Source: Arion vulgaris (taxonomy: Eukaryota > Mollusca > Gastropoda > Stylommatophora > Arionidae). From it: 64,000 nucleotides of DNA. The stretch lies in NCBI GenBank assembly GCA_020796225.1, contig CM036756.1, positions 60,540,644-60,604,643 on the forward strand, written 5' to 3'. The notes beneath the pieces were generated by a model. That model saw only the letters and a list, made by a program, of their open reading frames with translations, was not told the DNA's origin and ran no database searches. This document shows, in pieces, positions 3,559-7,578 of the stretch (positions are counted from its first letter, which is position 1; every line of letters starts with the position of its first letter). Both the position numbers and the translations under genes were made by a program.

Positions 3559-3903
3559 ATTCCATCTTTTGCTAAATTGAAATCAAACTACCCAGGATAC
3601 GCCCACTTCGGAGGGGCGTTCAATAATCATGACCTCATTAGCGCGATTGGGTGCAACACAAGCATGTTACTTCATGACACAAGTGCGCTTCGTCTCTCAG
3701 TGACTCTCAATAAAATTGGTGGAGTGCACTCATTGGGCAAAGAATTGATACGATTGTCCAAATATGGTCGAGATAGTGTCACTGGATTGGATGGACTTCA
3801 GTATATTTACCATCCAATAGCTTACGGTCCATATCTTGCAGATAAATATGGGTACCCCAATGTGTCCAAGCTGCATGATTTAGATCCAGTGGATACGAAG
3901 AAG
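3559..3903 (+). CDS. dae4: dae4 exon a (N-terminal half of the amidase domain)
   Basis: The acceptor is TTCTTCGTCTCCAG at 3545-3558 and the donor is AAG|GTAAGA after 3903. It encodes 115 codons, phase 0 at both ends. The first residues (IPSFAKLKSNYP) correspond to the very start of bacterial Tae4 proteins, so the missing upstream exon should carry little beyond a start codon and signal peptide. Codon AGT at 3682-3684 gives Ser where the family has its nucleophilic Cys. An in-frame ATG at 3529 lies before the acceptor and is not taken as the start. Confidence 0.93.
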
Positions 3904-6900
3904 GTAAGAGAAACATGTACTATGCAATTTAAAAAATAATATTCAGAATTGTGAAGATCAAACTAATGCTTAAGGATGAACGATATTACGTCTTAGTGAT
4001 GCAAGAATGAATGGAGCTGTGTCATACCAATGCAAGAATTAATTGAGCTGTGTCATATCAATGCAAGAATGAATGAAGCTGTGTCACACCAATGCAAGAA
4101 TGAATGAAACTATGTCATATCAATGCAAGAATGAATGAAACTGTGTCATACCAATGCAAGAATGAATGAAGCTGTGTCATACCAATGCAAGAATGAATGA
4201 AACTATGTCATATCAATGCAAGAATGAATGAAGCTGTGTCATACCAATGCAAGAATGAATGAAGCTGTGTCATACCAATGCAAGAATGAATGAAACTATG
4301 CCATACCAATGCAAGAATGAATGAAACTATGCCATACCAATGCACAAATGAATGGAACTATGTCATACCAATGCAAGAATGAATGGAACTATGTCATACC
4401 AATGCAAGAGTGAATGAAACTATGCCATACCAATGCAAGAATGAATGAAACTATGCCATACCAATGCAAGAATGAATGAAGCTGTGTCATACCAATGCAA
4501 GAATGAATGAAGCTGTGTCATACCAATGCAAGAATGAATGGAACTATGTTTTACTGATGCAAGAATGAATGGAGCAATGTCTTACTAAACGTACTACTTG
4601 GGAAACTACTCTGGCTGGAGTCACAAAACTACACTCATGCGGGCATTCTGCGTGATACATTGAGTATGATCCGAAAGGTGGAGGCTGGTTCTGTGCGCAG
4701 TCAATGGACTGAATCACTATAAGCGTCAACAATTCACAGAATAACATTCATCTTCATTCCGGGGTACATGGGTATCAATGGCAATGAGAAAGCAGACAAG
4801 CTGCTAGGCTCTGCCACCATATTCGAGGTCAGCCAATAGACAGAGTTGACATTCTGAAAGCTCTCACAGAGTGTGGCCGCAAAGAGGATTTTCATTTAAA
4901 CCAATCCACATCAACTGCTAGACTGCAAGAGTTTGGACTGAAGATTGGAGTGGCCAGAAAAGAACAGCACAACAGGTACGTGAGTAGGCTCATCAATCAA
5001 CATCGAACTGGTAAGGTTAGTTGCTGGACGCTGTTGGAGATATTGTGAAGGAGATCGGAGCACCCATGGACATGTCCGGAGTGCAATGAAGATATTCATT
5101 ACTGAAACTTACTATTCCTATTGAAGGATATGTCCACAATTATCTCTCTCCACTGATTTCCATTTTGTGGGAGAAAATGGTGTCGCAACGATTGATGCAC
5201 CGCAGTTCTATTCTGTGTTGGATACAGGGCTGTAGCTGTTGCTCTATATGGATTTCTACTCTGGTCTGTATTCTATATTAAGGGCATGCATACTTATGTA
5301 GTATATTAGATGTGAATGTCAAAAAGGGTGGAGACTCATAGACAGAGCAAAAGAATACAGTCCAGTCTATGAGTCTTCACCCTTTCTGGCATTCACTTCT
5401 ACTATACTTCATAAGTATACTTACCATTCGACATCTGTTCGGGGAAACTGAGCACCTATGGATCTGCCCAGAGTGCTATGACGTCAGTTCAGTATCCACT
5501 AACCAAAACCAATACTTCATAAGACGTTATTCATTGGTCAACTTCTCACTTTCCATGTGGGTTTCGATCAAGAGCATATCTCCATTGCAGACTCATGCAG
5601 ATACACTGGGGTTAAGAATTATATTGACCTAAAGTGAACTGCTCAGAACATGATCTAGAAGAGAGAGATATGATCAGATAACTTTATCACTAGCTTTTAT
5701 AGTTGCCTTACATCATCAATGCTCGTATAGGGAGTGTGGTTACTACATTAGACAAACTATCAGAGCGAGCGTGGGACAACACAAAGCTAACATTGTAGAC
5801 GAAGATTCAAATATATCGAGCCTGCGTAATTAGTTCTTTACTATATTGCTCAGAAACATGAACAGCCTACTCAAGACACGAGAGGAGACTTAACATCTTT
5901 CACCTTTGATGTCTCCGCGAGATTATGAACATCAGGTGGTACGACAAGATAACCAACTCTAAAGTACTGCAACATGCAAACTTGCTTTCCATCGTGTGTA
6001 TGCTCAGCAGTGGACAACTAAGATGATTAGGGCATGTGAGAAGAATGGAAACTTATCGCATACCAAAACAAATGTTGTTCTGTAAACTTTCGGAGGGAAA
6101 AATGCAGCAGGGCAGACCACTGCTCAGATATAAAGATGTCTGCAAAGCCTCAATGAAAAGCTTTTCTATAGGTCCCAGCACCTGGGAAAAACTAGCTGAT
6201 GACAGAGTTGTGTGGAAAGCGATATTACGCAATGGTGCAGTTTTTTGAGAAGAGACTTATGTATGAGCTGAAAGACAAGAGAGAAAAGTAAAAACTCAGA
6301 AGTTGTCACAGTAAAACACTTGCCAATTGACCGTCTGTAAAGACGAAGAAAGCAATACACAAACAACATGATGACATTCAGCAGTTTGAAATTGTGAGTG
6401 AGTTGAGAAGCAATATGTGGCCACACTCAGTCGAGTGGAAAACTAAGCTTCGGGAAACCTGACAGACCTGAAGCTGACTGCCTTGTTTGTGGTCCACATT
6501 AAACTAAGTGCATGACCAGAGATCACTGAAGAAGAATTATCTAACATAATGTTGATGAGGTTGTACACTGAATGAAAAGACATGATTGGACAACTTTGTC
6601 CTTGAGCTGTCCTAATTTGTCCATTGATGATCTAACTTTGAAGCTTAGTTTGATGTTTCTAGCAATACATGTTGTGTATGCAGCTTACATGATCTTTCTT
6701 CTCTTCAGAACTTCTGGGGCAAACAAGGACTTCTGAGAGTGATTACCTATACAAAGAAGAAGAACATGCCCAGAGGTCATGTGGCACTGTGGGACTGCAA
6801 CCATTTTCACCAAGCCCGAGATTGGATAGCAGGACATAGTCTCATTACAGCCGAGTTCTGGCAATCTTCAGGTATGTACTCTGGAGTTGTGACAATCTCC

Positions 6901-7578
6901 ATGTAAACAGTTTGATCACAGTCAAGTTCTCGTAGTATCTAGGTATCTAGTATCATCATAGTCGAGTTCTGGTAGTACACAGATAAGTAGTCTTGCCATG
7001 AGTTCTGGTAGTACACAGATAAATAGTCTCTCATAGTTGAGTTATGGTAGTACACAGATAAATAGTCTCTCATAGTTGAGTTATGGTAGTACACAGATAA
7101 GTAGTCTTGCCATAGTCGAGTTCATGGTAGTACACAGGTAACTAGTCTCTCATAGTCGAGTTCTGGTAGTACACAGATAACTAGTCTCTCATAGTCGAGT
7201 TATGGTAGTACACAGATAAGTAGACTGTCAGGGGCATAAAGAAACATCCTAACCTGAACAGCTTCGTGGCAACTGCACTAGCCATGTGGCCATTAAATTC
7301 CACAAGCACATGTCCCCCGGTCCTACACCGCTCTAAAAATCGGTATTACTGGCATTAACAACAGTAATAATAACTAATGATTTATGACTTTTATCTCAAC
7401 AGATTCCGACTGCAGTCATATACCAGACACACAGAACCCTCCAACCTCACCGGACGTGAATGAGATACTGGCAAAATTAAGACCTGATGCAAGACCCATC
7501 AAACTCCGACATCGACACTGGGAGAAGCATTTCATTGAGAAATACTATCAGCTGCACAAGTCGACTTTTAAACGCTAA
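3559..7578 (+). CDS. dae4: dae4-like gene: domesticated type VI secretion amidase effector (Tae4 family), 5' end missing
   Basis: Three exons (3559-3903, 6709-6871, 7403-7578) splice in frame (phase 0, then phase 1) to give 227 codons and a stop. The product belongs to the Tae4 family. In bacteria Tae4 is a papain-like Cys-His amidase delivered by type VI secretion that cuts the D-Glu/mDAP bond of peptidoglycan; animal dae genes are horizontally acquired relatives linked to antibacterial defence. Visible hallmarks are an N-terminal SFAKLKSNYPGY segment, the TSALRLSVTLN helix matching the family's catalytic Cys-containing motif, GKQGLLRV and the GHVALWD histidine motif. Two oddities: the catalytic Cys position is Ser, and no start or signal peptide is present, so an upstream exon entering in phase 0 is expected. 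The last 58 residues extend beyond the domain and are Pro- and basic-rich. Family identity is strong; activity is doubtful. Confidence 0.92.
3990..4575 (+). repeat. 31-bp minisatellite in dae4 intron 1
   Basis: About 18 head-to-tail units of 31 bp around TGTCATACCAATGCAAGAAT plus GAATGAAGC. Variants differ at one or two positions (CTGTGTC, CTATGTC, CTATGCC). The array starts about 90 bases after the exon a donor. Confidence 0.93.
4576..5130 (+). mobile_element. LINE RNase H domain remnant
   Basis: Broken frames encode a RNase H-like LINE segment (DTLSMIRKVEAGSVRSQW, then a degraded ADKLxGSATI-type stretch and the GAPMDMSGVQ end). Close relatives on the other strand are at 42111-42455 and 56430-56940. 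Multiple frameshifts; non-functional. It lies inside dae4 intron 1. Confidence 0.75.
5131..5740. repeat. LINE debris with an imperfect palindrome
   Basis: Positions 5290-5343 and 5365-5420 form an imperfect inverted repeat of about 54 bases with a 21-base loop (arm text GTCAAAAAGGGTGGAGACTC against its complement). Positions 5440-5500 carry another LINE ORF2 end (GETEHLWICPECYDV). This fills the middle of dae4 intron 1. Confidence 0.6.
5741..6540 (+). mobile_element. LINE reverse-transcriptase C-terminal remnant
   Basis: Broken frames give the post-RT region of a LINE: YCSETWTAYSRHERRLN, LRWLGHVRRME and QQGRPLLRYKDVCKASMKS, then WEKLADDRVVWK. This LGHVRRM...GRP...YKDVCK pattern is typical of ORF2 C-termini in invertebrate non-LTR elements. 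Positions 6420-6540 resemble the LINE end at 37950-38060. Confidence 0.82.
6709..6871 (+). CDS. dae4: dae4 exon b (catalytic histidine half)
   Basis: The acceptor is TTTCTTCTCTTCAG (6695-6708) and the donor is TCAG|GTATGT after 6871. It has 163 bases, phase 0 in and phase 1 out. It encodes NFWGKQGLLRVITY and then GHVALWDC; His codon CAT is at 6778-6780. This corresponds to the F-x-G-K-x-G-I and GHxxLW signatures of Tae4. It joins exon a without any frame correction. Confidence 0.93.
6935..7225 (+). repeat. 39-bp minisatellite in dae4 intron 2, similar to the exon b/donor boundary
   Basis: About seven units containing CATAGTCGAGTTCTGGTAGT then ACACAGATAAGTAGTCTCT. The unit resembles the end of exon b and its donor (CAGCCGAGTTCTGGCAATCT followed by TCAGGTATGTAC), which suggests that boundary was tandemly duplicated. 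Confidence 0.85.
7226..7335 (+). mobile_element. SINE-G fragment (3' half)
   Basis: Contains CCTGAACAGCTTCGTGGCAA and CCATGTGGCCATTAAATTCC, the complement of sequence in the SINE-G copies at 33640 and 62500. Truncated. Confidence 0.7.
7403..7578 (+). CDS. dae4: dae4 exon c (C-terminal extension and stop)
   Basis: The acceptor is TTTTATCTCAACAG (7389-7402). The two bases AT complete a GAT codon with the G left by exon b. It encodes 58 residues, starting SDCSHIPDTQNPPTSPD after that Asp, with a basic C-terminus ending STFKR, and a TAA stop at 7576-7578. This extension lies outside the recognised amidase motifs; its role is unknown. No canonical AATAAA was noticed directly after the stop. Confidence 0.88.

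What the first reader, a model, noticed from the sequence alone, without database searches (positions are those of the whole stretch)
3559..7578. Horizontally acquired bacterial antibacterial amidase (Tae4/Dae4 family) in an animal-like genome
Three exons with canonical splice sites join without any frame correction into a Tae4-family protein with the GHxxLW histidine motif, the ALRLSVTLN helix and the GKxG signature. Seen directly: exons, phases, motifs, stop. Known: Tae4 enzymes are type VI secretion effectors that cut peptidoglycan, and dae genes are their domesticated animal relatives. Inferred: this is a fixed, intron-bearing nuclear gene, not contamination, because it is embedded in animal SINEs and faces ANAPC4.
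Basis: partly seen in the sequence, partly recalled or inferred. Interest (0 to 1): 0.93.

Follow-up and report, generated by a model that had tools for sequence, protein, structure and literature searches.

The report
Disarmed bacterial-weapon gene in slugs
A slug carries a gene descended from a bacterial cell-wall-cutting weapon, but its protein lacks the residue that does the cutting, as do the relatives found in snails, clams, worms and their kin, so the old weapon was probably turned into something that holds on to bacteria or does another job outside the cell.

Summary

Tae4's catalytic cysteine is a serine here (codon 3682-3684). Among the 182 relatives listed (named ones: molluscs, annelids, a bryozoan, a brachiopod) the residue is S 110, A 47, T 16, G, D, K one each, gap 6: Cys in 0 of 176, against 23 of 23 bacterial loci (21 distinct). 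The slug has two copies, both Ser, dN/dS about 0.04 with dS saturated.

Best reading: an ancient lophotrochozoan domestication of Tae4 that lost hydrolysis and was kept as a secreted non-catalytic protein with a basic tail, probably a peptidoglycan binder. Domesticated amidase (dae) genes are known; this dead-nucleophile branch looks like a new variant.

The parts
3559..3903 (+). exon 2 of the gene (first exon inside the window): start of the Tae4-like domain, residues 51-165 of A0A0B6ZZF5
   Evidence: in-frame splice, AG/GT borders; 100% to P0001 residues 50-165
3682..3684 (+). codon AGT, Ser92: the column where bacterial Tae4 has the catalytic Cys
   Evidence: alignment with 6ijf_C HNTCAIRVS and 182 relatives; profile-profile alignment
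6709..6871 (+). exon 3: second half of the Tae4-like domain with GKQG and GHVALWDC
6778..6780 (+). His189, equivalent of the Tae4 catalytic His; kept in 166 of 177 relatives with a residue there
6796..6798 (+). Cys195, Cys in 178 of 178 relatives with a residue there; likely disulfide partner of Cys223 in the next exon (inference)
7403..7578 (+). exon 4: end of the domain (DSDC) and basic C-terminal tail RHRHWEKHFIEKYYQLHK, stop TAA
   Evidence: tail charge
3904..6708 (+). intron with a 31-bp tandem array (3999-4585) and interspersed repeats
6872..7402 (+). intron (phase 1) with a 39-bp tandem array (6948-7230)
3252..3456 (+). interspersed repeat just upstream, 85% copy at 61380-61578; SINE-like by look (recalled)
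30762..30923 (-). ANAPC4 (PF12896) exon, only match in the genome; convergent neighbour
51421..51717 (-). ANAPC4_WD40-like exon, just under the cut-off

Best explanation
This is one of two copies in the slug genome of an ancient lophotrochozoan gene family that descends from the bacterial type VI amidase effector Tae4 and has lost the catalytic cysteine. Shown here: the four-exon gene, the Tae4 fold by prediction, the missing nucleophile in the listed relatives, strong constraint, a hydrophobic leader before and a basic tail after the domain in most complete rows. Inferred: a bacterial tae4 gene entered an early lophotrochozoan, gained a leader exon and a tail exon, lost hydrolysis before the named phyla split, and was kept because the folded cleft still binds something. 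The most likely ligand is peptidoglycan or its stem peptides, so the secreted protein would act as a non-cutting recognition or coating protein, as the non-catalytic peptidoglycan recognition proteins do (recalled parallel), with the basic tail helping to hold it on microbial or host surfaces. The dead-enzyme and antiquity steps are well supported; the ligand is a guess from descent.
Against: No binding or expression data. Sequence-level similarity to bacterial Tae4 is weak: PDB hits of the animal profile have E 0.02-1, and the animal profile finds the Tae4 locus in only 1 of 14 Tae4-bearing genomes, at E 0.07. 9 rows of bryozoan type have Arg for the His, which suits a binder whose site has drifted as well as an unrelated job. 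One search listed 120 of 143 hits, so 23 were not seen in that call, and the search needs shared 5-residue words: Cys-bearing animal relatives are not excluded.
Confidence: 0.55

Rival explanations
1. Dead enzyme with a job unrelated to bacteria: the Tae4 fold was kept as a stable extracellular scaffold, for example in mucus, matrix, development or reproduction.
For: The nucleophile column drifts freely (S, A, T, G, D, K) and bryozoan-type rows lose the His too; what is kept best is structural (R95, S97, W193, C195, G172). No immune evidence exists.
Against: His189 is kept in 166 of 177 rows and Asp194 in 171 of 178, more than a scaffold alone would need, though both may be structural.
Confidence: 0.3
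2. Active amidase with serine (or a shifted residue) as nucleophile, so still an antibacterial enzyme.
For: Ser is the commonest residue (110 of 176); Ser-His-Asp triads work in other folds; His189 and Asp194 are kept; one Cys (C195) is invariant.
Against: Ala in 47 and Thr in 16 rows of the same family; C44A kills StTae4 activity (PMC3695027 passages); C195 has a likely disulfide partner in the spliced form (PDSxC in 80 rows) and sits six residues along the strand from the His, so it is unlikely to reach it.
Confidence: 0.1
3. One reading: a working domesticated antibacterial amidase (Dae4) acquired by this animal.
For: Tae4 homology, leader, intron-bearing gene.
Against: No catalytic Cys; not a recent or slug-specific gain.
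Confidence: 0.04
4. Decaying pseudogene or assembly contamination.
For: Loss of a catalytic residue; only a borderline Pfam score.
Against: dN/dS about 0.04 between two slug copies; 65-84% identity to gastropods of other lineages; matching splice layout; window on a 91-Mb contig.
Confidence: 0.01

Closest known systems
Tae4, type VI secretion amidase effector 4 (Pfam PF14113; structures 4hfl, 4hff, 4j30, 6ijf, 4bi3)
   Same: Fold over model residues 47-223; GHxxLW and T-x-[AS]-x-R-x-S motifs in the same order
   Different: Catalytic Cys absent; leader and basic tail added; introns; Cys195 and PDSxC Cys added or moved; no secretion-system context (eukaryote)
Domesticated amidase effectors (Dae2 and others, Chou et al. 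2015, title and citing passages only seen; content recalled)
   Same: Tae-derived, secreted, kept in animals over long times (recalled abstract)
   Different: Dae proteins were reported as active antibacterial enzymes (recalled; tick Dae2 described as hydrolysing peptidoglycan in PMC5306392 passage); this family lacks the nucleophile. Whether that paper's dae4 set includes these genes could not be checked (not held)
Non-catalytic peptidoglycan recognition proteins (recalled)
   Same: Parallel: amidase fold that lost a catalytic Cys and serves as receptor
   Different: Unrelated fold and family; binding not shown here
Phage lysozyme co-opted by bivalves (PMC5303276; listing and one passage seen)
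   Same: Prokaryotic or phage cell-wall enzyme kept in molluscs
   Different: Described there as a lysozyme; different enzyme family and narrower host range

Membership tests
Tae4 (bacterial amidase effector) | Sequence match to PF14113 | tested here: met
   27 bits, cut-off 27, E 5e-6; full Arion protein 26.4, so borderline; 49 of 49 in A1 match at E 0.1
Tae4 (bacterial amidase effector) | Tae4 variant of the papain-like NlpC/P60 fold | tested here: met
Tae4 (bacterial amidase effector) | Catalytic Cys (Cys44 in StTae4, Cys47 in AtTae4) | tested here: not met
   Ser92; Cys 0 of 176 relatives against 23 of 23 bacterial loci
Tae4 (bacterial amidase effector) | Catalytic His in GHxxLW | tested here: met
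   His189; 166 of 177 relatives
Tae4 (bacterial amidase effector) | Third triad residue Asp (two known placements) | tested here: inconclusive
   Asp194 in 171 of 178; neither known placement (PMC6277958 passages) is matched by sequence and distances could not be measured
Tae4 (bacterial amidase effector) | Cuts peptidoglycan; paired with Tai4 immunity protein | not testable with these tools
   needs bench work; no Tai4 search was made
Dae (domesticated amidase effector) | Tae-derived gene in a eukaryote nuclear genome | tested here: met
   introns, leader exon, two copies
Dae (domesticated amidase effector) | Eukaryotic secretion signal | tested here: met
   hydrophobic leader in exon 1 of the slug gene and in 83 of 102 testable rows by a crude hydropathy test; no signal-peptide program was run
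Dae (domesticated amidase effector) | Active antibacterial amidase | not testable with these tools
   activity not assayed; the needed residue is missing

The most novel reading that the evidence does not exclude
A secreted protein family founded by one ancient transfer of a type VI effector gene into an early lophotrochozoan, disarmed before the phyla split and kept for over half a billion years (age recalled) as a non-cutting peptidoglycan sensor or opsonin: a second, independent invention of the receptor made from a dead amidase.
Probability: 0.35. Interest if true: 0.85.

Novelty: new variant of a known kind. Interest (0 to 1): 0.62.

Why it matters
Domesticated type VI effectors are presented as borrowed antibacterial enzymes. 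A widespread branch that keeps the fold and much of the site but not the nucleophile says that a transferred toxin can be preserved for something other than toxicity. It gives a ready system, with close relatives in oysters, mussels, pond snails and annelids, to ask how an enzyme becomes a receptor, and it warns that Tae4 or 'amidase' labels on lophotrochozoan proteins should not be read as enzyme activity.

Tried and rejected
Rejected: contamination or pseudogene; a misaligned nucleophile (the flanking T-x-x-x-R-x-S and GH motifs lock the column); a replacement Cys at another site (only C195 is universal, 178 of 178; C82 is Cys in 45 of 172, C223 in 91 of 154).

Full report
The observation. 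The three exons, their borders and their phases are as described and give 227 residues and a stop. The window lies at G000:C4:60540644-60604643 in an assembly of 1,519,966,189 bases and 3,227 contigs. The best homologue, A0A0B6ZZF5 of Arion vulgaris (277 aa), differs from the genome at one residue. The published A. vulgaris assembly is 1.54 Gb (PMC9392753, passages), close to but not the same as this figure, so the species is A. vulgaris or very near it. The record is held from UniRef with no contig; that it comes from a transcriptome is my recollection, and it is the only evidence for expression in this species here. Its first 50 residues map to an open exon at L002:3589-3738, window -6410 to -6261, ending gaacag|gtaag. 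So the gene has four exons and the first intron is about 9.8 kb.

The missing nucleophile. In StTae4 Cys44, His126 and Asp137 form the site, and changing any of them to Ala ends toxicity (PMC3695027, passages seen); the Cys-His-Asp set is described as conserved in the family (PMC6277958, passages seen). The AtTae4 structure aligns to the animal profile as HNTC-AIRVS against hDts-AlRls. I aligned all 182 proteins listed: the Cys column holds Ser 110, Ala 47, Thr 16, Gly, Asp and Lys one each, gap 6, Cys none. As control I took Tae4-family loci from bacteria: all 23 loci L004-L026 (21 distinct places, two being the same locus fetched twice) carry Cys there; these come from two seed genomes, five more named loci, and 13 of 398 genomes of one phylum searched with PF14113. 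The His is kept in 166 of 177 animal rows, replaced by Arg in 9, all of the bryozoan type, and by Phe and Tyr in one each.

Age and constraint. Named relatives are molluscs (gastropods, bivalves, cephalopods, a chiton), three annelids (Paralvinella, Capitella, Owenia), the bryozoan Watersipora and the brachiopod Lingula; most rows carry no name. A quick tree of 53 animal and 16 bacterial rows puts them on two sides of one branch (SH-aLRT 99), with molluscs (26 rows, 100) and bryozoan-type rows (6, 98) as groups; it warns of long branches. The slug genome holds a second copy on C1 around 85.77-85.78 Mb with the three domain and tail exons open and also DTSALRLS; its first exon was not found. 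Over 224 codons dN is 0.11 and dS 2.8, which is saturated, ratio about 0.04. A whole-genome duplication in the stylommatophoran ancestor is reported (PMC9392753, passages) and may explain the pair; I did not show synteny. 80 rows read FW..P[D/G]SxC, the spliced form, and 94 read FW..[PSA]G at the phase-1 border where the slug gene has its last intron, which suggests a splice point shared between phyla; without their genomic DNA this stays an inference.

Architecture. Of 102 rows that start with Met and have 12 or more residues before the domain, 83 have a strongly hydrophobic 10-residue window. Of 79 of these with 25 or more residues after the domain, the last 40 residues have mean net charge +6.3, and 57 have +5 or more; typical motifs are LRHRHWEKKFIKKYY and NGHLRHAKHRG. 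Cys195 is Cys in 178 of 178 rows and Cys223 in 91 of 154, many of the others being unspliced reads; I take them as a disulfide. No replacement nucleophile is apparent.

How it works. The loss of the catalytic residue in the listed family, with constraint on the rest, fits a pseudoenzyme. Descent and the retained His and Asp make peptidoglycan stem peptides the most likely ligand, and secretion plus a basic tail suit a protein that coats or senses bacteria. That is inference; a matrix or developmental role is the main rival. A serine enzyme is unlikely because Ala and Thr are common at the same place.

Surroundings. ANAPC4 lies on the minus strand; the only PF12896 match in the genome is at 30762-30923 and a WD40 piece at 51421-51717 is just under its cut-off. 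The gene's introns and flanks are full of tandem arrays and interspersed repeats.

Known or new. Horizontal gain of tae genes by animals is known (Chou et al. 2015, not held; cited in passages of PMC4832377, PMC5303276, PMC5306392 and PMC11347951). I found no paper on this dead-nucleophile branch in ten searches of an open-licence library (listed under Tried and rejected), which does not show that none exists; in particular that paper's own dae4 list may include some of these genes. I rate it a new variant of a known kind.

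Noticed in passing
G000:C1:85772826-85783835 minus (L028, L031, L033): Second slug copy of the gene, 77-79% identical in its first two found exons, open exons, also Ser at the nucleophile column; possibly a whole-genome-duplication pair.
   Followed up: partly
P0111, P0114, P0116-P0119, P0121, P0122, P0178 (protein ids): Bryozoan-type relatives have Arg instead of the site His (ADARIALWDC) as well as Ser or Thr for the Cys: both core residues lost.
   Followed up: partly
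P0081, P0086, P0075 (Ruditapes, Mercenaria, Mactra): Some bivalves have a second type of the protein with Thr at the nucleophile column; Mercenaria and Mactra carry both types.
   Followed up: no
window 3999-4585, 6948-7230, 7742-8645: Tandem arrays (31 bp x 19, 39 bp x 7, 28 bp x 32) inside two introns and just behind the gene.
   Followed up: no
window 36954-37850 and 57861-58523, plus strand: RNase H (E 1.8e-16) and reverse transcriptase (E 5.8e-24) pieces of retroelements.
   Followed up: no
window 34194-34770 and 35302-35858: Two copies in opposite orientation of a 71-bp tandem unit with an adjoining reading frame (NIIYAIICKRCNKAYIG...), which looks like a GIY-YIG element (label recalled; Pfam was not run on these frames).
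   Followed up: no
window 3252-3456 and 61380-61578: 85% identical interspersed repeat with tRNA-like promoter look; no tRNA found by ARAGORN.
   Followed up: partly
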